Shown piece by piece: positions 3,039 to 14,595 of a stretch of 21,381 nt of DNA (positions are counted from its first letter, which is position 1; each line of letters starts with the position of its first letter). The stretch spans positions 1,596 to 22,976 of the IMG/VR virus record IMGVR_UViG_3300014050_000153, one strand, 5' to 3'. The DNA is from a virus. The position numbers were made by a program, and so were the translations under genes. A model generated the notes under the pieces. The model was not told where the DNA came from, did no database searches, and saw only the letters and a program-made list of their open reading frames with translations.

Positions 3039-3364
3039 CAATATCAGGATCAATTCAGCCCAGACTTGAGATAGTCAGGAGAACGCCAAACTCGGAGATG
3101 CTGGCGAGGATTGCTTACGACAATGTCCTGTCGGTGATGGGAAAGAATCTTGCCAATGGGAAGCATGAGGATGGTGGGTGGAACGAGGGTGCCGAGGCCA
3201 GCCCTAAGTGGCACCTGCACCGTGTGGTACGCCATTGCGTACAGGCCATGATGCTGATGGATGGGGTGGAGCCGAAGGACAGGGAGACGATTGAGATCCA
3301 TGTAAGGCATGCGCTCGCAAGGTCAACCCTTGCGCTGGCTCAGGTAACTGGAGCAGCGACATGA
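3035..3364 (+). CDS. DUF5664-like / dATP-dGTP diphosphohydrolase-like small helical protein
   Basis: I choose ATG 3035, which overlaps the previous stop, over the ATG 60 bases upstream; this gives 109 residues. The central part has a G-G-W-N-E-G stretch, then W-H-L-H-R-V-V-R-H, then a H-V-R-H-A-L-A-R helix. This order resembles the N-W-x-x-G ... R-H ... H-L-x-H-A layout I associate with DUF5664 and related small phage nucleotide hydrolases. Such helical proteins act on deoxynucleotides or have unknown roles. The match is by eye and partial; the acidic metal ligands of MazG proteins are not obvious. Its place beside replication genes fits nucleotide metabolism. Treat the enzymatic label as tentative. 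Confidence 0.6.
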   Translation: MTISGSIQPRLEIVRRTPNSEMLARIAYDNVLSVMGKNLANGKHEDGGWNEGAEASPKWHLHRVVRHCVQAMMLMDGVEPKDRETIEIHVRHALARSTLALAQVTGAAT

Positions 3365-4095
3365 GCTGCAGAAACTCGTCTTGCAAAAACAGCTTGCAAT
3401 GCCAAGGAGGCGAAGTAGGTGTGTCAGTGGAAGCGGTGCATAGCGGGTCGGGAGATCCGACCACAGGTAAAAGTGTCTGTTCCTCAGCGTCGAATTACCT
3501 TGTTCAACACACCGCTTCCGCTTTTTTAGCGCATCATCCAACTGCTAAGCAGGACATTACATCTGCCGTATGCATCCCAGATGTATTCACTCCAACAGAA
3601 TGCATGACAATTATTTGCGAGGCACAGGCTGTCGGCATGGAGAGAGCAAAGATCCTACGAGATGGTAAATCAATTAAGAGTTATGGGAGGACATGCTCGG
3701 CGGTGTGGCTCCCGAGGAAGGTCGGCAGGGAATGGATGTATCAGCGTGTGGTCAATGCCTCCCTAGATGTTAACGATCAAAATTACAGGTTTCAACTGGA
3801 CGACATACAGTCTCTTCAGGTTTTGGAATACAGAATGTTCCAGCGTTTTTATTGGCACTACGACACATTCATCGATAGCAGGAGAAAGCTGACGGCTGTC
3901 TTCAATTTGTCAGACCCAAGGGATTATGTCGGAGGTGGCCTGAGGATTATCGGGACGATCTATAATAAGTGGTGGCTTCGCCAGCGTGGTGCTGGCGTTT
4001 GGTTCCCCAGCTTTGTACGCCATTCCGCCAAGGCTCCGCTATGGGGAAGGCGGTGGGTTCTGGTTGCTTGGCTCCTTGGAGAGGAATTCAAATGA
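3361..4095 (+). CDS. 2OG-Fe(II) oxygenase, prolyl-4-hydroxylase-like
   Basis: The double-stranded beta-helix core is clear. It has iron ligands H166-Y-D168, then a G-G-G-L-R-I strand, the distal R-H221-S-A ligand and a basic residue (R230/R231) in G-R-R-W-V-L-V-A-W for 2-oxoglutarate (numbering from ATG 3361). Phage proteins of this kind hydroxylate protein or nucleic-acid targets; the substrate here is unknown. The start is a problem. ATG 3361 overlaps the previous stop and GTG 3421 follows AAGGAGG, but both add 45-65 odd residues before the domain. No ATG, GTG or TTG lies between 3439 and 3603. An ATT at 3556 after AAGCAGGAC would give a normal-looking 179-residue enzyme and leave 3365-3555 as a leader. 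Enzyme class is secure; the start is not. Confidence 0.85.
   Translation: MSCRNSSCKNSLQCQGGEVGVSVEAVHSGSGDPTTGKSVCSSASNYLVQHTASAFLAHHPTAKQDITSAVCIPDVFTPTECMTIICEAQAVGMERAKILRDGKSIKSYGRTCSAVWLPRKVGREWMYQRVVNASLDVNDQNYRFQLDDIQSLQVLEYRMFQRFYWHYDTFIDSRRKLTAVFNLSDPRDYVGGGLRIIGTIYNKWWLRQRGAGVWFPSFVRHSAKAPLWGRRWVLVAWLLGEEFK
3429..3527 (+). ncRNA. Candidate three-way-junction RNA ending in a U-tract
   Basis: A perfect 10-bp pairing joins 3429-3438 (GGAAGCGGTG) with 3510-3519 (CACCGCTTCC). It encloses a 6-bp hairpin (GGTCGG 3446-3451 with CCGACC 3457-3462, loop GAGAT) and a second arm (AGGTAA 3465-3470 with TTACCT 3495-3500). Six T follow at 3522-3527. This looks like a folded leader or terminator RNA rather than chance. 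It lies in the stretch where the start of the hydroxylase gene is uncertain. It does not fit a tRNA or any riboswitch class I know. Confidence 0.4.
3541..3552. promoter_or_regulatory. Dispersed palindrome, copy 1 (ACTGCTAAGCAG)
   Basis: Stem CTGC/GCAG (or CTGCT/AGCAG) around TAA. Identical 12-mers occur at 9485, 12121 and 20777. This copy lies just before the possible ATT start of the hydroxylase, the same kind of place as the other copies. Confidence 0.5.
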
Positions 4096-5514: not shown

Positions 5515-5693
5515 GGCATCTCCTCTGGGATTTCCTCGAGGGCATCCCGCACAGCCTCCTCGGCTGTGGATTGAGCGTGTTCCACGAGTTCGTCGTCGTT
5601 CCCGATGACTCCCTCGTCACGCAGTTTCTCGACGATGCGTGAGGCAATCGCCTCGATGGTTTCGCTGTCGTCGATGACCTGTCTTATTGTCAT
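5511..5693 (-). CDS. Small acidic helical protein, 60 aa
   Basis: I set the start at ATG 5693. It overlaps the previous stop and sits after GGGAGGAG; the longer frame to 5762 is a read-back into the preceding gene. The product is very acidic and almost all helix. It contains I-V-E-K-L-R-D-E-G-V-I, and ends E-E-I-P-E-E-M-P. An acidic 60-residue protein encoded just before an RHH protein could be an antitoxin-like or DNA-mimic partner, but no toxin is evident and I infer nothing firm. Confidence 0.65.
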   Translation of the reverse strand: MTIRQVIDDSETIEAIASRIVEKLRDEGVIGNDDELVEHAQSTAEEAVRDALEEIPEEMP

Positions 5694-6550
5694 GATCTTG
5701 ACTCCTCCCGACTGCCAAGCAGTTGCCTCGCTGCCTTGAAAAGCTGGATGAGTTTCCAACATTCCTTGCCCCGCAACTTCTCATCATGGATCGTGAACTG
5801 CAGGTTGAGATTGCAGTCGATGTGCGATGCGTTGTTGCCGTGCACGGCCAGCGTGACAGCCACCTTTCCGTTCTTCTTGGTTACCGTGCGGGTTGGCCAA
5901 CTGCCCCTCTGGCAGTCCTCGTAGGAGCGTAGGTCACCCTCACGAAATGGATCGATGTTGTAGATGAGCTGACTGTCGTCCGACTGGGCGGGGATCTTTT
6001 TCTGCACGCCAGCAAGGCGGTACAGTGCCTTGACCGTGGCACGGTTCCTCCTGCGTTGTACGGAATAGTACTCCCTGTCCGCCTCGTACTGCTTGAGCAG
6101 TTTCTGCCCGAGGAGTTTCAGCTCGACGATGAGCGATGCCACATAGGGAATCGACTCGGCGTTGAATCTCCACTTGGTTGGCAGGTTGTGCTTCTGCCCG
6201 ATGATGTCTCCCCATACGGCGTAAACGCATGGAGCCTCACCACGGTGACAGGTCAGCGTAACCCTGAACTGATTATCAGACGGCAGGGTGATGCTGTACT
6301 TGTCTTTGTACTCGTCGGACTTTTCGCTGATGTAGTCACGAACCCTCCACAACTGCTCGCTGAGTGCAGAGCTATTCCACCCTCGGAGCCTTGTCGCCTT
6401 GCCCAGCTCGGGGATTTGCCCAGCCAGTTTCAGCGTCACGCCATTCTTCAGGATGCGCTCGGCCACATCCCTCGGCAGGCGTTTGAACAGGTTCTGTCTT
6501 GTGATCCACAGCTCATTGCCCTGCGGTGCTCTTTGTCTTTTGATGCTCAT
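5690..6550 (-). CDS. Hypothetical protein, 286 aa
   Basis: Not recognised. The first 60 residues are basic and helical (R-Q-N-L-F-K-R-L-P-R-D-V-A-E-R-I). A middle part follows with strands and a C-H-R-G-E-A-P-C segment (two Cys six apart), then a long helix rich in Leu, Lys and Tyr (about 140-180) and a beta-rich region with alternating hydrophobics (about 220-260). A second helix and an Arg/Glu/Ser tail close the protein. The ATG overlaps the upstream stop (ATGA). It sits downstream of the VWA gene and may belong to that module. No catalytic motif is evident. Confidence 0.8.
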   Translation of the reverse strand: MSIKRQRAPQGNELWITRQNLFKRLPRDVAERILKNGVTLKLAGQIPELGKATRLRGWNSSALSEQLWRVRDYISEKSDEYKDKYSITLPSDNQFRVTLTCHRGEAPCVYAVWGDIIGQKHNLPTKWRFNAESIPYVASLIVELKLLGQKLLKQYEADREYYSVQRRRNRATVKALYRLAGVQKKIPAQSDDSQLIYNIDPFREGDLRSYEDCQRGSWPTRTVTKKNGKVAVTLAVHGNNASHIDCNLNLQFTIHDEKLRGKECWKLIQLFKAARQLLGSREESRS

Positions 6551-6870
6551 CGTCTGTCCCTCCTTGGTTTTTTACCCTCACGAATGAAGGTGATTGTGTT
6601 GACCTTCTCGTACCCACGCCTGACCAGCTCCTGCTCGGCGAGCCTGAGCCTGTCCTGCGTGTCGAATGGAATCCCAGACTTGGACAGGAAATAAAAATCC
6701 CACCAAAGCCCAAGAGTCTCATCAATCAGTCGCTGGGTTGGCAGCTTGGCGAAGTCCCGAATGATGCGGTTGACCCGCTCGATGGCGGTCTCGCCCTTCG
6801 GCCTTTGCTGGCTGGCAATCTCAGCCCTGAATTCCCTCGGCGTTATCGTTGTCGATTTGTTTGTAGGCAT
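6547..6870 (-). CDS. Hypothetical protein, 107 aa
   Basis: The start is ATG 6870, preceded by AAGGAGCAGACACA, the same ribosome site plus CAGACA spacer used by other genes in this operon. The product is mostly helical, basic at both ends (the C-terminal 12 residues are nearly all Lys, Arg or Gly), with a W-W-D-F-Y aromatic cluster near residue 60. The family is not recognised. It begins a string of overlapping genes running to 4911, so its ribosome site probably drives a translation block separate from the VWA gene. Confidence 0.75.
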   Translation of the reverse strand: MPTNKSTTITPREFRAEIASQQRPKGETAIERVNRIIRDFAKLPTQRLIDETLGLWWDFYFLSKSGIPFDTQDRLRLAEQELVRRGYEKVNTITFIREGKKPRRDRR

Positions 6871-6934: not shown

Positions 6935-8302
6935 TCACACCCCGAGGGGTATGTTCACCCGCTCGCCATAGGGAGGGGTGATGTTGGTTGTGTTGCCGTG
7001 AATCGCCCAAACCGTTGGGCAAATTTCACGACCCCAGTTGGATGTCTCTCCATCGGTGATGAAGAGGTGAACCTTCACCTCGTGGCCGTCCGAGACCAGC
7101 GACTCCAGCTTTTCGCTGGCATCGTCGAAGTCGGTGCCACCACCGCCACGCAATTTCGGCAGCGGGTCGCCGTCGAGATATTCCTCGAAGCCGTAGTGCT
7201 GAGTGTCGCACGATCCGATGAAGACTTTCGCCCTCAGCGTCTGGGCACACTCGGCAACCTCGGCGATGGCCTGACGGTACCGCTCCTCGCAAATGGAACC
7301 CGAGGTGTCCACCGTCACGGCAATGACCCCAGCTCCCTCGGCGCAAAGGCTCGGGAGAATGAAGTCACGGTGACGGCGGGACGGCCTGCGCCAGCTCCAG
7401 TCGTCGGTGGTGCGCTCAGTCAGGTGACGGCGTAGCTCGTCCCGCCAGTTGACCAGCGGTTTGCGAGCCTCGCCCAGCAGTCGAGCCAGCCCAGCGGGGA
7501 GTGACCCAGCCAGTCGAGCAGTCGCCTCGGCGGTGGCCACGGTGCTGTCGATTTTGTCCGACAACTCCTGAGCCTGAGCCTCGGTGAGCTGATTGCCCGA
7601 GCCGTCCTTGGGGTCTTCAATATCCCCCCAGCCAGTCGATTGCTCGTCGCCCTGCTGGTCGCCAGACTGACCGCCAGATTGTTGGCCGTCCTGATCTCCA
7701 GACTGGTCTCCAGCCTGATCTCCAGAACTGCCTTCATCGTCGGACTCATCGCTGTCGCCATCGCCAGAGCCAGACTCGTCAGACTTCTCGTCGGACTCGT
7801 CGTCTCCACCAGAGCCAGAGCCAGAGTTTTCCTGATCGTCCTGCTGGTTCTGATCCTGCTGTTGCTGTTGCTCCTGCTTCTGCTCCTCCTGCTTCTTCGA
7901 GAGAATCTCGTAGATTTGGAAGGCGGACAGGTCACGGTACTTCTCGTCGAGCAGACCGCCCTCGGGGAGGTAGTACCCGCCGTCCTTGCAGATGAGGTTG
8001 ATGGCGTAGTCACATGCCTGATTCCACCGTGATGGGTCACGGTGCCCACGCACCAGAGGGTGCTTGAGGATCACATGAAGAACCTCGTGCACAATGAGAC
8101 CAACGACCTGCCTGACCTCCAGCTTCTCGAGGAAGCTGGGGGCAAAGCGGATGCGGGTGCCATCGGTGCACGCCGTCTTCGCAGACTCGTCGAGGATGCT
8201 CGGCAAAGTCAGCGCAACCGTCCCGAAGAACGGTGCGTTGAGCACGAGCCAAGTCCTCGCCCGAGAAAGTTTTTCCTCGGGAGTAATTTGTTTCTTGTTC
8301 AT
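6935..8302 (-). CDS. Zinc-metallopeptidase-like plus VWA domain protein (DUF2201/CobT-like)
   Basis: Three parts are visible in 455 residues. An N-terminal domain (1-135) has H72-E-V-L-H76, an H-E-x-x-H zinc motif, as in DUF2201 putative metallopeptidases. A low-complexity linker (about 137-225) is almost entirely Gln, Asp, Ser, Glu and Gly. A VWA domain (about 280-440) keeps a full MIDAS: D332-x-S334-x-S336, T390 and D417. VWA proteins of this type pair with MoxR- or CobS-type AAA+ ATPases, and that ATPase is the next gene upstream. The pair is likely a chaperone-like machine that remodels or inserts a metal into a target. The start follows GGAGG, and a palindrome sits just upstream. The phage-specific role is unknown. 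Confidence 0.88.
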   Translation of the reverse strand: MNKKQITPEEKLSRARTWLVLNAPFFGTVALTLPSILDESAKTACTDGTRIRFAPSFLEKLEVRQVVGLIVHEVLHVILKHPLVRGHRDPSRWNQACDYAINLICKDGGYYLPEGGLLDEKYRDLSAFQIYEILSKKQEEQKQEQQQQQDQNQQDDQENSGSGSGGDDESDEKSDESGSGDGDSDESDDEGSSGDQAGDQSGDQDGQQSGGQSGDQQGDEQSTGWGDIEDPKDGSGNQLTEAQAQELSDKIDSTVATAEATARLAGSLPAGLARLLGEARKPLVNWRDELRRHLTERTTDDWSWRRPSRRHRDFILPSLCAEGAGVIAVTVDTSGSICEERYRQAIAEVAECAQTLRAKVFIGSCDTQHYGFEEYLDGDPLPKLRGGGGTDFDDASEKLESLVSDGHEVKVHLFITDGETSNWGREICPTVWAIHGNTTNITPPYGERVNIPLGV

Positions 8303-8316
8303 CGCTGAACCTCCAT

Positions 8317-8331
8317 GACTGCTTCGCAGTC
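8317..8331. promoter_or_regulatory. Dispersed palindrome, copy 2 (GACTGC-TTC-GCAGTC)
   Basis: A perfect 6-bp inverted repeat with a three-base loop, in the 31-base gap between the AAA+ stop and the VWA start. It lies immediately upstream of the VWA ribosome site, so on the mRNA it would form a small hairpin next to GGAGG. Confidence 0.6.
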
Positions 8332-8333
8332 GG

Positions 8334-9377
8334 TTAAGAGTTTACCGCCAGCACCTGACCACGGTTGATGACCCACTCGTTGTAGGCATCGCTCGAGGTC
8401 TCGAGTTTCGGATTCACCCGAGTCGCCGTCTTGGTGGCGAATGCCTCGAACTCAGCCCCGAGGCGGGGAATGTAGGTGAAGAACGCCTTCGCATTCTTCT
8501 CGTTCTTCAGCCGAGCGGTGAGCGCACCGACCAAAGCCCAGCGCACCTCGGGTTTCGAGGGAACCGTGGCCTTGGCGGGATTCGCCAGCACCTCGTCGGG
8601 CAATGTCGCCAGCCCCTCGTACACGGTCAGGAAGCCGTGCAGGTCGAGGCCAGCCGTGCCCAGAGCACCGCTGAGCCAAGAGGGAGAGGTGAGTCCAGCC
8701 TTGACGACCTTGTCCACCGCCTCCCACGAGCGGGGGCAAGCCACTTTCTTGGCGAAGTCCGCAGTGGGTTCCTCGCTGAAGCGGTCAGGTCGGAACTGCA
8801 GGAAGCTGAGAATCTGCGGAGAGATTCCAGCACCAGCAGCCCAGCCCAGCCAGTGGTCGAGATCGGGGATGACCTCGAGCGTGGCATCGAACCGCCCGAT
8901 GAGCGGGGAGATGAGCCAGCTCACGCCAGCACGGTCAGTGCGTGCGTTGGTCGCACCCACGAACTGCACGCAATCGGGGATGCGTTTTCCTTCGACCTCT
9001 CTCGCCCAGATGATGTGTTGCAGACCCTTCTGCACCGCCTCACTCGCTTGCCCGAGATCGTCGAGGAAGCAGAGCGTGGGCACCTTCGCATTCAGCAACC
9101 TGCGGAGCAGGCCGATGGGGTCGAAGGTTGCCTGACCGTTGAGGACGACAGGGAGACCCTTGTAGTCCGTAGGATCGGAGCAGGCGGGAGTGTCCACGAT
9201 CACGGTGGGATCACCGCCGATTTCCTCGGCCACCCGCTTCCAAGCGGACTGCACGAGGGCGGTTTTACCAACGCCAGCTCGCCCGATGAGGAGCGTGCTG
9301 ATCTTGTTTTTGAAGGCGAGGTACAAATCCTCGGCCAACTTTCCGACTTTCACTGAGTTAATGATGTTGTTGTTCAT
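8334..9377 (-). CDS. MoxR/CobS-type AAA+ ATPase
   Basis: I start it at ATG 9377 (347 aa), because the extra 27 residues of the longer frame are a read-through of the A-rich leader. Walker A is G-R-A-G-V-G-K-T (32-39), Walker B T-L-C-F-L-D-D (101-107) and sensor 1 G-A-T-N (141-144). A likely arginine finger lies in I-G-R-F (160-163). A helical lid and C-terminal part follow. This is the AAA_5/MoxR layout. MoxR-type rings work with VWA partners, and the adjacent gene encodes one. Phages are known to carry cobS/cobT-like pairs whose function in infection is unclear. The start has only a weak GAGAG site and the CAGACACA spacer shared with its neighbours. Confidence 0.92.
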   Translation of the reverse strand: MNNNIINSVKVGKLAEDLYLAFKNKISTLLIGRAGVGKTALVQSAWKRVAEEIGGDPTVIVDTPACSDPTDYKGLPVVLNGQATFDPIGLLRRLLNAKVPTLCFLDDLGQASEAVQKGLQHIIWAREVEGKRIPDCVQFVGATNARTDRAGVSWLISPLIGRFDATLEVIPDLDHWLGWAAGAGISPQILSFLQFRPDRFSEEPTADFAKKVACPRSWEAVDKVVKAGLTSPSWLSGALGTAGLDLHGFLTVYEGLATLPDEVLANPAKATVPSKPEVRWALVGALTARLKNEKNAKAFFTYIPRLGAEFEAFATKTATRVNPKLETSSDAYNEWVINRGQVLAVNS

Positions 9378-9398
9378 TGTGTCTGTTCTCTCTTTCTG

Positions 9399-9493
9399 TT
9401 TTTGTTTTTGTTTTTGTTTGGTGCACCCAGTCATTCGACAGGGATCATGGGAGCGCACCGACAGGCGATGCGCTCCTGATGATCACTGCTAAG
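9399..9493 (-). repeat. Structured intergenic leader A, upstream of the AAA+ gene
   Basis: On the mRNA strand this reads: palindrome copy 3, GATCATCA, an 8-bp hairpin (9450-9457 with 9469-9476, loop 11), TGATCCCTG, GGGTGCA, then an A-rich unpaired stretch of AAAAAC units before the ribosome site. The order matches leader B at 10389-10480, so the two are repeated designs. Confidence 0.55.
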
Positions 9494-9496
9494 CAG
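9485..9496. promoter_or_regulatory. Dispersed palindrome, copy 3 (ACTGCTAAGCAG)
   Basis: Identical to copies at 3541, 12121 and 20777. The stop codon of the 289-aa minus-strand gene (9489-9491) lies inside it. It is preceded by GATC on the plus strand, giving the recurring GATCACTGC string. Confidence 0.55.
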
Positions 9497-10358
9497 ATGC
9501 CCCGAGCGTCGAGCGAAGGGACTCGAGCGTCGAGAGCACCGACTTCGATGCGCTGACGGCCTGCGCACGAGTGGTCTTGTCGTTCCGCAGAACCTCGGGG
9601 TCGTTGAAGACCGCCAAGGTTTTGCGTGCATTCGCCAAGGCCGTGGCAATTTCCGCATTGCCAGTGAAGTTGAGACACTCGGCCTCATCGATCACATCGG
9701 CCACCGAGTGAACGGTGCTGTCCCGAAAGACAGCGTCCGACTTGGCGAGCACCTGACCGAACTTTCCGACGACCTCGGCCACCCGCTCGAGGAGCGAGGC
9801 GTGGCAGTCGGCCAGCCGTGCGCTGACCGCCTGCTTCGCCCGAGCCTGCAGGGCGGGATCGTTCAGGTCGGTTTCCCGAGGGAACGAGAACTGGTCAAAA
9901 GCAACCGAGAATTTCTGGCGGAAACTCTCGGAGGTTTTCGGGTACTCGCTCGGGTTGAAGAGACCGTTGAGGCGAAGCTCGGCCTCGCATTTGATCTCGT
10001 GGTACTTCGCCGCCAGCTCGTCCGCCAGCTCGTTGAACTCGGCCACCAACTTGTCGTGGATGGCGATGAACGACTGGTAGGACGAGATTGGGAGAACCCT
10101 CTGCTCGCCGTGCCAAGGGAGAGTGAACTTGTAAAAGTTCTCCCGAATCCTCGAGGCCACCTGATTGATGGCCTTGAGGTAGTCGGGGCGGATCAGTGCC
10201 TTGACGAACCGTCCGCCCTGTCCCGAGTTGATCTTGTGGTTCTCCTCGACCTCGGCGGTGGCCTTCCGATCCTGCCGTCCCCCGATGAAGCGGGAGATGG
10301 ACAAGTCAGCGAGCCGTGCGTGGCCGTTGAGTTTGTCGTGGGTGATGTGTGTGTTCAT
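9489..10358 (-). CDS. Helical protein of the AAA+/VWA module (DUF3150-like), 289 aa
   Basis: I choose ATG 10358, which follows AAGGAGCAGAC; the seven extra upstream codons are not needed. The protein is mostly long helices (about 85-140 and 165-280), with a middle P-S-E-Y-P-K-T segment and Ser/Ala-rich C-terminal helices. Size, helical nature and position directly upstream of a MoxR/CobS-type ATPase and a VWA gene resemble the DUF3150 phage family as I remember it. I cannot confirm this without a profile search. It is probably the substrate, adaptor or structural partner of the ATPase. No enzymatic motif is visible. Confidence 0.75.
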   Translation of the reverse strand: MNTHITHDKLNGHARLADLSISRFIGGRQDRKATAEVEENHKINSGQGGRFVKALIRPDYLKAINQVASRIRENFYKFTLPWHGEQRVLPISSYQSFIAIHDKLVAEFNELADELAAKYHEIKCEAELRLNGLFNPSEYPKTSESFRQKFSVAFDQFSFPRETDLNDPALQARAKQAVSARLADCHASLLERVAEVVGKFGQVLAKSDAVFRDSTVHSVADVIDEAECLNFTGNAEIATALANARKTLAVFNDPEVLRNDKTTRAQAVSASKSVLSTLESLRSTLGASA

Positions 10359-12989: not shown

Positions 12990-13202
12990 ATGCCTTGGAA
13001 TTACGAAGAACACAAAGCACGGCTTCATGCCGACGAGGCATACAAGACACGCTTCTATGCCATGTGTCGGGGGTGGCTTCGGAACAAGCTGCGGAACGAC
13101 CCAGAGTATGCCCTGATCTACAAAGTAAAGCGGCGCATACAGGCAAGGAAGCGCAGGAAGCTGCAAAAGAAGCTGAGGGCTAAACATGACAGAGCAGGAT
13201 AA
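12990..13202 (+). CDS. Small very basic protein before TerL, 70 aa
   Basis: ATG 12990 follows GGAGG at nine bases. The product is helical and strongly basic, with the second half rich in Lys and Arg (K-V-K-R-R-I-Q-A-R-K-R-R-K-L), so it probably binds nucleic acid. It overlaps the TerL start by 17 bases. A terminase-associated or HNH-like role would fit the position, but no HNH motif or Cys pairs are visible. The family is unknown. Confidence 0.65.
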   Translation: MPWNYEEHKARLHADEAYKTRFYAMCRGWLRNKLRNDPEYALIYKVKRRIQARKRRKLQKKLRAKHDRAG

Positions 13203-14595
13203 GCTGAAGTTCCTTTCAACCTTGGCTGGGTTCAGCACCCAGTACCTCGGGCTTACCCCATACCCTTGGCAGATTCAGTGTATGGATGCCTTGGACGCTG
13301 GCGGGAGGGTGGCCGTCAGGGCACCCAACGGATCTGGGAAGTCGAGCTTCTTGGTCGTCCCAGCCATCATCTGGCACTGCGCCGTCTTCCCAAACAGCTA
13401 TGTGATTGTGACCTCCAATGTGGGGCGGCAGATCAAGTCTGGGCTATTTGCCACCGTCCATAAGTTTGCCTCAAAGCTCAAGGGTTGGACGGTCAACTCC
13501 AACGAGCTGATCAGCCCGATCAACGGAAGGGCGGTTGCCTTCACTACCGATGAACCCCAGCGGATGGAGGGCTGGCACCCCGAGGGCAGCACCACTGGCG
13601 GCAAGGGGAACCTGATGCTGATTTATGACGAGGCCAAGTCGATCCCAGCCGAGATATGGCACGCTGGGGAACGCACCCAACCCAACCGATGGCTGGCCAT
13701 CAGCAGCACAGGCTCGGCCAACAGCTTCTTTGCCAAGTGCTTCAGGGAGCACGCCAAGTTCTGGAAGACCTTCACGATCCCGATTGGCCAGTGTCCCCAC
13801 ATCACAGAGGAGTCCATCAGGAACCTCAAGGAGCTGTATGGAGACGACCATCCTTTGGTCAGATCCATGATCCATAACGAATTTGTGGACGAGGGGGACA
13901 ACTCGACAGTGATAACCGAATCCAAGATCAGTGAGTGCAGGGGCAATCCACCAGAGCATGTGAAGATGGACAAGGTGGCCTTTATAGACTGGGGAGGTGC
14001 TGGAGTGGACGAAACCGTCTTGGCCATCATGGAGGGCAATAAAATGCTGCCATTGATCATTATTAAGGATCGGGACGAAATGCGGACGGTGGGCAGGGTA
14101 ATCCGTGAGCTGAGGGCATTCGGGGTAAGCCCCAAGCTGGTCTTTGCCGACAACGGCGGGATTGGATCTCCGATGATCAGGCGAATGGATGAACAGGGTT
14201 TCAGCGTAAATAGGATCAACTTCGGGTCTGCTGGGTCGGCTGGCTACCACAATAAGGCGGCTGAGATGCTGTTTAAGGCGGCTCGCCTGATTGAGGATAG
14301 GGGAGTGATCCTACCAAAGGACGACATCATGGATGGCCAGCTATGCACCCGCAGGTTCCACACGACATCAAGCGGTGACATTAAGCTGGAAAGCAAGGCC
14401 GACTATAAGCAGAGGACTGGTGGGAGCAGCCCAGACAGGGCGGATGCCGCAGCGGGAGCCATTTGGGCATATATCAAGACCAAGCCGAGCTTGACCCAGA
14501 ACACAGTTGATGGTAGCCATATGCAGACGGATGTATTTGGAAATACTATACAAACTTTTGAGTCTGACCGTGGCGGCTTCGATGCTGGTGATTAA
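13186..14595 (+). CDS. terL: Terminase large subunit
   Basis: The ATPase half has Walker A A-P-N-G-S-G-K-S (46-53) and Walker B L-M-L-I-Y-D148-E149, followed by the S-S-T-G coupling region (173-176). The RNase-H-like nuclease half has acidic residues in I-D268-W-G-G, F-A-D322-N-G-G and S-P-D417-R-A-D420. The 469-aa length is usual. It powers DNA packaging and cuts genome ends with TerS and the portal. The start overlaps the preceding basic protein gene. Identification is secure; the packaging type (cos, pac or other) cannot be read from this alone. Confidence 0.95.
   Translation: MTEQDKLKFLSTLAGFSTQYLGLTPYPWQIQCMDALDAGGRVAVRAPNGSGKSSFLVVPAIIWHCAVFPNSYVIVTSNVGRQIKSGLFATVHKFASKLKGWTVNSNELISPINGRAVAFTTDEPQRMEGWHPEGSTTGGKGNLMLIYDEAKSIPAEIWHAGERTQPNRWLAISSTGSANSFFAKCFREHAKFWKTFTIPIGQCPHITEESIRNLKELYGDDHPLVRSMIHNEFVDEGDNSTVITESKISECRGNPPEHVKMDKVAFIDWGGAGVDETVLAIMEGNKMLPLIIIKDRDEMRTVGRVIRELRAFGVSPKLVFADNGGIGSPMIRRMDEQGFSVNRINFGSAGSAGYHNKAAEMLFKAARLIEDRGVILPKDDIMDGQLCTRRFHTTSSGDIKLESKADYKQRTGGSSPDRADAAAGAIWAYIKTKPSLTQNTVDGSHMQTDVFGNTIQTFESDRGGFDAGD

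What the first reader, a model, noticed from the sequence alone, without database searches (positions are those of the whole stretch)
6935..10358. Three-gene module: helical protein, MoxR/CobS-type AAA+ ATPase and zinc-peptidase/VWA protein
Seen: Walker A/B and sensor motifs in the ATPase. The partner has an H-E-x-x-H site, an 85-residue Gln/Asp/Ser linker and a complete MIDAS. A long helical protein is encoded just before. Known: MoxR-VWA and CobS-CobT pairs are chaperones or metal-inserting machines in bacteria. Inference: the phage carries a full remodelling machine that acts on its own proteins or the host's. The combination of peptidase-like and VWA domains with a dedicated helical partner is the best candidate here for an undescribed system.
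Basis: partly seen in the sequence, partly recalled or inferred. Interest (0 to 1): 0.8.

Follow-up and report, generated by a model that had tools for sequence, protein, structure and literature searches.

The report
Phage–plasmid MoxR/VWA-protease/DUF3150 module
This phage carries a three-protein molecular machine (an ATP-driven motor, a protein joining a zinc-protease-like domain to a target-gripping domain, and a third partner of unknown function) that also occurs in many other phages and in conjugative plasmids, which suggests that it serves the DNA of mobile elements rather than only building virus particles.

Summary
On the minus strand of an IMG/VR phage fragment lie a DUF3150-related protein (10358-9489), a MoxR/midasin-type AAA+ ATPase (9377-8334) and a DUF2201 protein (8302-6935): HExxHx4H domain, 87-residue acidic Gln/Asp/Ser linker, complete MIDAS VWA domain. 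Motifs are invariant in 66 diverse phage homologues. Of 80 distant viral loci, 74 have the ATPase and 55 the third gene, always on one strand; 52 of 80 sampled bacterial loci also have it.

The two-gene core is already known: N4 gp24/gp25 ('unknown function'), and jumbo phages, where Iyer et al. 2021 proposed virion assembly. New here are three points. The third gene belongs with DUF3150 (profile-profile E=5e-13; AF2 pLDDT 95). A parallel AAA+/DUF3150/HExxH-linker-VWA triad sits on conjugative plasmids, next to ssb-bet-exo in three of five plasmids inspected. In 23/23 viral records with a virion marker the module lies on the strand opposite terminase, portal and capsid genes.

Best reading: a mobile-element AAA+/VWA remodelling machine acting on nucleoprotein complexes during DNA replication, recombination or transfer. 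The target is unproven (0.42). Virion assembly and host takeover or counter-defence remain rivals. New variant of a known kind.

The parts
9489..10358 (-). Third component, 289 aa, DUF3150-related; ATG start with an AAGGAG-like ribosome-binding site
   Evidence: Profile-profile comparison with plasmid DUF3150 proteins prob 97.9, E=5.3e-13; BFVD top match a DUF3150 protein, E=1e-14, TM 0.84; AF2 pLDDT 95.1; below Pfam's own cut-off
8334..9377 (-). MoxR/midasin-clade AAA+ ATPase, 347 aa (ORF opens at 9458; likely ATG start 9377, with only a weak ribosome-binding-like sequence)
   Evidence: AAA_5 E=3e-6; phrog_1297 E=3e-48; best PDB profile match midasin E=4e-44; Walker A/B, sensor and arginine residues conserved in 43 homologues
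6935..8302 (-). DUF2201 protein, 455 aa: N-terminal zinc-metallopeptidase-like domain, disordered acidic linker, C-terminal VWA domain
   Evidence: PF13203 E=2.5e-52 and PF09967 E=3.8e-11, both over Pfam cut-offs; VWA fold Z up to 12.8
8060..8089 (-). HEVLHVILKH, residues 72-81: HExxHx4H motif
   Evidence: Invariant in 66 phage homologues and in plasmid and actinobacterial homologues
7997..8026 (-). WNQACDYAIN, residues 93-102: invariant helix following HExxH, candidate third metal-ligand region
   Evidence: W93, N94, A96, D98 and N102 invariant
7631..7891 (-). Acidic Gln/Asp/Ser/Gly linker, residues 138-224 (87 aa, 95% Q/D/S/E/G/N)
   Evidence: low pLDDT over 172-219; length varies between relatives
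6935..7324 (-). VWA domain with full MIDAS (D332-x-S-x-S336, T390, D417)
6547..6870 (-). Small gene (107 aa) following the VWA gene, unknown function
   Evidence: Found again in the nearest relatives L009, L010, L017; no Pfam or PHROG match
5690..6550 (-). Conserved fourth gene of this phage clade (286 aa), start overlaps the previous stop, unknown function
   Evidence: Follows the module in L002, L003, L005, L008-L010, L014-L019 (16 HMM hits); no PHROG match and no significant Pfam match

Best explanation
It is a three-component AAA+/VWA remodelling machine of mobile genetic elements. By analogy with NorQ-NorD, RavA-ViaA and midasin, the MoxR-type ATPase forms a ring, the VWA domain docks on it and grips a target peptide through its metal site, and ATP hydrolysis pulls on or reshapes the target. 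The long acidic linker tethers a zinc-protease-like domain that can reach the gripped target and cleave or bind it. The DUF3150-related protein is a dedicated third subunit, perhaps an adaptor that selects the target. The target is most likely a protein-DNA complex handled during replication, recombination or transfer of the element's own DNA. Shown here: domains, invariant motifs, conserved co-location and co-direction, a parallel triad in conjugative plasmids, and separation from virion genes. Inferred: complex formation, ring formation, metal binding, cleavage and the identity of the target.
For: Invariant HExxHx4H and MIDAS residues in 66 homologues and invariant ATPase motifs. ATPase beside VWA in 74 of 80 viral loci (40 of 40 with 4.5 kb on both sides) and the third gene in 55 of 80, all on one strand; third gene in 52 of 80 bacterial loci. 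Third gene homologous to DUF3150 of conjugative plasmids. A parallel triad AAA+ / DUF3150 / VWA with its own invariant HExxH, acidic linker and MIDAS in pCAR1 and four other plasmids, directly beside or interleaved with ssb, recT/bet and lambda-exonuclease genes in three of the five and with ssb, recT and lambda-exonuclease genes 10-19 kb away in pCAR1. DUF3150 on 1139 plasmids, 983 of them conjugative. DUF2201-type triads on some 40 plasmids of mainly Burkholderiales and beside VirB4/VirB11-like genes in 18-19 genome loci. Plasmids make no virions. In phages the module lies on the strand opposite terminase, portal and capsid genes in 23 of 23 records and on the polA strand in 10 of 11. In N4 it sits between RNA polymerase II genes and the DNA helicase and polymerase genes. 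Literature: deletion of the SXT genes bet, exo, s067, s068 and s070 lowered transfer up to 10-fold (PMC2791158); that s067/s068 are the DUF3150/VWA genes is my inference from their position in IncC plasmids.
Against: No experiment on any of the phage proteins was found. DnaB-type helicase genes lie on the opposite strand too (13 of 13), so the strand pattern shows separation from virion genes rather than attachment to replication genes. No YqaJ exonuclease was found in 35 phage records, so the recombination link is strong only in plasmids. In jumbo phage RaK2 the two-gene version lies among head and tail genes on the same strand. The ATPase was seen in virion mass spectrometry of phage DC4, by one peptide (PMC10638138), and carries an 'ESI-MS/MS' note in PA5oct. 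N4-type phages and pSYSA have no recognisable third gene. The canonical Glu third zinc ligand of M48-type proteases seems replaced by Asn94 or Asp98 (inference), so cleavage may be absent.
Confidence: 0.42

Rival explanations
1. Virion assembly and maturation chaperone-protease: the MoxR/VWA pair helps fold or assemble head or tail proteins and the metallopeptidase domain processes them, as proposed by Iyer et al. 2021 for jumbo phages by analogy with the Acidianus two-tailed virus.
For: Published proposal (PMC7824862); placement in the virion gene cluster of RaK2; ATPase peptides in virion preparations of DC4 (PMC10638138) and PA5oct (note in the record).
Against: The same module is on conjugative plasmids that make no virions; in 23 of 23 viral records the module is on the strand opposite virion genes; in N4 it lies among the genes before the DNA helicase and polymerase.
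Confidence: 0.2
2. Host takeover or counter-defence: the machine extracts and cleaves a host protein (for example a defence or nucleoid protein) early in infection or after plasmid entry.
For: Early- or middle-type placement in N4; a transcription unit separate from virion genes; shared by phages and conjugative plasmids, both of which face host defence; the catalytic Glu of HExxH is invariant.
Against: The module is kept together over large sequence distances and not seen in variable accessory islands as anti-defence genes usually are (inference); no PADLOC match, though PADLOC holds defence rather than counter-defence models; no defence target suggested by any neighbour.
Confidence: 0.25
3. 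Metal insertion or cofactor chaperone in the manner of CobS-CobT or NorQ-NorD: the HExxH domain is a metal-binding site, not a protease, and the machine loads metal into another protein.
For: Same ATPase clade and VWA fold, with NorD among the structural matches; the plasmid relatives match CobT/VWA models; the third zinc ligand is not the canonical Glu (inference).
Against: No CobT domain in the window protein; no metalloenzyme neighbour conserved with the module was recognised; the Glu of HExxH is invariant, which pure metal binding would not require.
Confidence: 0.1

Closest known systems
Phage MoxR-vWA-metallopeptidase pair (N4 gp24/gp25; group 2.2 jumbo phages, Iyer et al. 2021, PMC7824862; PHROGs 1297 and 1314)
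   Same: Same ATPase and same DUF2201 metallopeptidase-VWA protein in neighbouring genes
   Different: No DUF3150-related third gene recognisable in N4-type phages; the window and most sampled metagenomic phages have it between, before or after the pair
AAA+ / DUF3150 / VWA genes of IncP-7 pCAR1, IncC and related plasmids (ORF100-103 of pCAR1, PMC2642839)
   Same: Homologous ATPase, homologous DUF3150 protein, VWA protein with HExxH, acidic linker and MIDAS
   Different: VWA protein is CobT/NorD-like and longer; its HExxH domain is only weakly similar to DUF2201_N (E=5e-4) and is followed by NxxED.RIE instead of WNxACDYAIN
DUF2201-type triads of Burkholderiales plasmids (e.g. Cupriavidus pMTS2)
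   Same: ATPase - DUF3150-like - DUF2201 VWA in one direction
   Different: On conjugative plasmids, near PRTRC or type IV secretion genes, not in a phage
MoxR-vWA ternary conflict systems (VMAP, iSTAND, FtsH, beta-propeller; Kaur et al. 2020, PMC7159879)
   Same: MoxR ATPase plus VWA protein plus a third component
   Different: Third component is DUF3150-related; no effector domain; VWA is C-terminal to a metallopeptidase-like domain
RavA-ViaA and NorQ-NorD
   Same: MoxR ATPase working with a MIDAS VWA partner; NorD appears among fold matches
   Different: No HExxH domain or acidic linker of this kind is known to me in RavA-ViaA or NorQ-NorD (memory, not tested); no DUF3150

Membership tests
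MoxR-clade AAA+ ATPase | Walker A, Walker B, sensor 1 Asn and arginine finger | tested here: met
   GRAGVGKT, CFLDD, N144, R162, R216; invariant or nearly so in 43 homologues
MoxR-clade AAA+ ATPase | Closest to the dynein/midasin/MoxR branch rather than to other AAA+ branches | tested here: met
   Best PDB profile matches are midasin at E=4e-44, far ahead of Clp ATPases at 7e-15; AAA_5 over Pfam cut-off
MoxR-clade AAA+ ATPase | Helix-2 insert of the clade | not tested
DUF2201 (metallopeptidase-VWA) family | Pfam DUF2201_N and DUF2201 over curated cut-offs | tested here: met
   178.6 bits against 23.2 and 43.6 against 26.4
DUF2201 (metallopeptidase-VWA) family | HExxH and complete MIDAS conserved | tested here: met
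   Invariant in 66 sequences
DUF3150 (PF11348) | Score over Pfam's curated cut-off | tested here: not met
   Window protein not reported even at E up to 10; nearest plasmid relative L023 22.1 bits against cut-off 24.9. Hence called DUF3150-related, not a DUF3150 member
DUF3150 (PF11348) | Homology by profile-profile comparison and predicted fold | tested here: met
   hhalign prob 97.9, E=5.3e-13 over 176 columns; Foldseek BFVD DUF3150 protein E=1e-14, TM 0.84
Gluzincin / M48-type zinc protease | HExxH in a protease-like fold | tested here: inconclusive
   All 11 PDB profile hits of the domain are M48, MJ1213, HtpX, BepA or Ste24 chains, but weak (best E=0.009), with HExxH aligned in the two alignments printed; the domain was not folded and searched alone
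Gluzincin / M48-type zinc protease | Downstream Glu as third zinc ligand | tested here: inconclusive
   Downstream invariant helix is WNxAxDxxxN with no invariant Glu; ligand assignment needs a metal-bound structure
Cobaltochelatase CobS-CobT | CobT / CobT_C domains in the VWA partner | tested here: not met
   Not among Pfam hits of the window protein at E up to 1; found only in the plasmid relatives
MoxR-vWA ternary conflict systems (VMAP, iSTAND and others) | VMAP, iSTAND, FtsH or beta-propeller third component with effector domains | tested here: not met
   Third protein is DUF3150-related and no effector, FtsH or propeller domain was found in the module; VMAP models themselves were not available
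Known anti-phage defence systems (PADLOC) | Match to a PADLOC model | tested here: not met
   Only one E=0.06 hit to the ATPase P-loop region

The most novel reading that the evidence does not exclude
Lytic phages and conjugative plasmids share one ancient ternary machine (DUF3150 + MoxR AAA+ + HExxH-linker-VWA) that pulls apart and cleaves proteins bound to the element's DNA during single-strand annealing recombination, replication or entry: a mobile-element counterpart of AAA+-assisted DNA-protein complex proteolysis, carried by over a thousand sequenced plasmids, including IncC multidrug-resistance plasmids.
Probability: 0.2. Interest if true: 0.85.

Novelty: new variant of a known kind. 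Interest (0 to 1): 0.52.

Why it matters
The core pair is a widespread unexplained gene pair of phages (matches in 423 and 516 of 50,697 phage records), including the model phage N4, and is often mislabelled 'HNH endonuclease'. The third gene's family, DUF3150, is on over a thousand plasmids, mostly conjugative, and no paper in the searched library names it. Linking the two as one kind of ternary machine turns several 'unknown function' core genes into one testable system. It also weakens the only published idea found (virion assembly), because plasmids have no virions.

Tried and rejected
Foldseek of the third protein against PDB: no match at E<=0.001. VIA-align second look: only its helical bundle, at Z near 10, which is not meaningful for helices.
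Tree correlation (mirror tree): hel-vwa r=0.79 and vwa-atp r=0.77, but control genes (primase-helicase 0.91, terS 0.86) correlate as well or better, so it says nothing about interaction (the last comparison in that script failed for lack of shared loci).
Search for a hidden third gene in two-gene loci: gap proteins in LUZ7, MIF8, L038, L043, L065, L087, L096, L099, L106 and others do not match the third-gene profile.
HTH_27 hit on the third protein (E=0.007): sub-threshold, rejected.
'HNH endonuclease' (PHROG 1314): annotation error, rejected.
YqaJ exonuclease in 35 phage records: none.
DUF3150 Pfam search of the window's own record: no hit, though that search found nothing in its control genomes either.
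CRISPRi-ART paper for N4 essentiality data: no MoxR, ATPase, N4-like or Schitoviridae mention found in its main text.
Promoter and terminator scans: nothing informative.
Full report
OBSERVATION. The window is part of a 22,976-base virus record. On its minus strand lie, in order of transcription, a 289-aa protein (10358-9489), an ATPase (9377-8334), a 455-aa protein (8302-6935), a 107-aa protein (6870-6547) and a 286-aa protein (6550-5690). Pfam gives AAA_5 for the ATPase, and DUF2201_N 'putative metallopeptidase domain' (E=2.5e-52) plus the DUF2201 VWA-like domain (3.8e-11) for the 455-aa protein. At lower window coordinates on the plus strand is a DnaB helicase gene; at higher coordinates on the plus strand are a terminase-like, a SU10-like portal and a capsid gene. 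The module is therefore transcribed against both.

CONSERVATION OF RESIDUES. In 66 phage homologues at about 30% identity, H72, E73, H76, H81, W93, N94, A96, D98, N102, D332, S334, S336, T390 and D417 are invariant. The HExxHx4H, N/A/D/N and MIDAS residues also hold in plasmid and actinobacterial homologues. Linker length varies widely between relatives. The ATPase keeps its Walker and arginine residues, and its profile matches midasin best among solved structures (E=4e-44). The peptidase domain profile finds only zinc proteases of the M48/minigluzincin/HtpX/BepA/Ste24 kind, weakly (best E=0.009). AlphaFold2 gives a confident N-terminal domain, a disordered linker and a VWA domain that matches VWA folds at Z up to 12.8; NorD of a NorQ-NorD complex is among the Foldseek matches.

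CO-CONSERVATION OF GENES. Close relatives keep the order third gene - ATPase - VWA - (107-aa gene) - 286-aa gene. Among 80 loci found with a VWA profile in the viral collection (some nearly identical; 65 distinct at 88% identity among those of sufficient length, earlier loci included), 74 have the ATPase and 55 the third gene, all on one strand. Of the 40 loci with at least 4.5 kb on both sides, 40 have the ATPase and 27 the third gene. Three orders occur: ATPase-third-VWA (most common), third-ATPase-VWA and ATPase-VWA-third. In bacterial genomes 52 of 80 loci have the third gene. The two-gene version (N4, RaK2, PA5oct, phage G, CRP-7, Thermus phage phiFa, pSYSA) has no recognisable third gene.

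THE THIRD PROTEIN. It fails Pfam's DUF3150 cut-off. It is nevertheless homologous to DUF3150 by profile-profile comparison with five plasmid DUF3150 proteins (prob 97.9, E=5.3e-13) and by predicted structure (BFVD DUF3150 protein, E=1e-14, TM 0.84). Its model is very confident (pLDDT 95) and mixed alpha/beta with a C-terminal helical bundle. No PDB chain matched at E<=0.001.

MOBILE-ELEMENT DISTRIBUTION. The third gene of this type is on 42 plasmids of mainly Burkholderiales. In Cupriavidus pMTS2 the three genes are contiguous, near a PRTRC cassette; in 18-19 Paraburkholderia and Caballeronia genome loci VirB11- and VirB4-like genes lie nearby on the same strand. DUF3150 proper is on 1139 plasmids, 983 conjugative. 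In the five inspected plasmids it sits with an AAA+ gene and a VWA gene. In IncC the order is AAA+, hypothetical, ssb, bet, lambda-exonuclease, DUF3150, VWA; in two others ssb, recT and lambda-exonuclease stand directly before the triad; in pCAR1 they lie 10-19 kb away. These plasmid VWA proteins have an invariant HExxH, NxxED.RIE, a long acidic Q/S-rich linker and a MIDAS. Their HExxH region aligns with that of the phage protein at E=5e-4, so the common architecture may be shared ancestry or convergence. pCAR1 ORF100-103 had been noted as conserved in R478, Rts1, SXT and R391 (PMC2642839). In SXT, deletions of bet, exo, s067, s068 and s070 lowered transfer up to 10-fold (PMC2791158); the identity of s067/s068 with DUF3150/VWA is my positional inference.

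VIRION GENES. In 35 long viral records, terminase large subunit (19 records), portal (12) and capsid (6) genes cover 23 records, and all are on the strand opposite the module. PolA is on the same strand in 10 of 11 records and DnaB opposite in 13 of 13. The records are related, so these counts are not independent. They show a transcription unit separate from virion genes, which is not what the virion-assembly idea would lead one to expect; they do not prove a replication role.

KNOWN WORK. N4 gp24 and gp25 are listed as ATPase and vWFA protein of unknown function (PMC2784036). Iyer et al. described the pair with the N-terminal metallopeptidase domain in jumbo phages and proposed virion assembly plus processing (PMC7824862). 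Weak support for a virion link exists: one ATPase peptide in phage DC4 virions (PMC10638138) and an 'ESI-MS/MS' note on the PA5oct ATPase. No paper in the searched library names DUF3150.

MECHANISM. Shown: domain content, invariant sites, co-location, plasmid counterparts. From established knowledge of MoxR-VWA pairs (reviewed in PMC7159879): the VWA domain grips a peptide and ATPase action alters the bound protein. Inferred: the tethered zinc-protease-like domain acts on the gripped target, and the third protein is an adaptor or structural subunit. The catalytic Glu of HExxH is invariant, which favours hydrolysis, but the usual Glu third ligand is not evident, so binding without cleavage is possible. 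The only functional theme common to phages and plasmids is handling the element's own DNA, or the host cell it enters; I prefer the former at 0.42, host takeover or counter-defence at 0.25 and virion assembly at 0.2.

VERDICT. The core is already described; the ternary form shared with conjugative elements is a new variant of a known kind.

Noticed in passing
window 6935-8302; also N4 gp25, LUZ7 gp39, RaK2 gp481, PA5oct gp144 in RefSeq: PHROG family 1314 is named 'HNH endonuclease', and RefSeq phage records carry this label for a protein whose only domains are a DUF2201 metallopeptidase-like domain and a VWA domain: a propagated annotation error.
   Followed up: partly
window 5690-6550: A conserved 286-aa protein of unknown function follows the module in the window's close relatives only, with a start overlapping the previous stop; no PHROG and no significant Pfam match.
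   Followed up: partly
window 3361-4095: A 2OG-Fe(II) oxygenase (E=2.6e-8) is encoded on the plus strand between DnaB and the module.
   Followed up: no
window 13186-14595: Probable terminase large subunit poorly covered by models: weak DEAD, phrog_5902 (unknown) and phrog_38 hits, while its relative L073:1438-2862 matches phrog_2 terminase.
   Followed up: partly
L194 (IncC plasmid pNDM10469) 4145-12138: The recombination genes ssb-bet-exo lie between the AAA+ gene and the DUF3150-VWA genes, so the triad and the Red-like system interleave on an IncC plasmid.
   Followed up: partly
L193-L197 VWA proteins: CobT/NorD-like VWA proteins of conjugative plasmids have an invariant N-terminal HExxH plus NxxED.RIE before the acidic linker, a metallopeptidase-like signature not reported by Pfam.
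   Followed up: partly
L132:10746-11417 and eight further Acidobacteria loci: Acidobacterial copies of the triad lie near a Siphovirus Gp157-type gene, and ten acidobacterial loci have an RNase-H-like gene, which suggests phage-like or mobile-element context.
   Followed up: no
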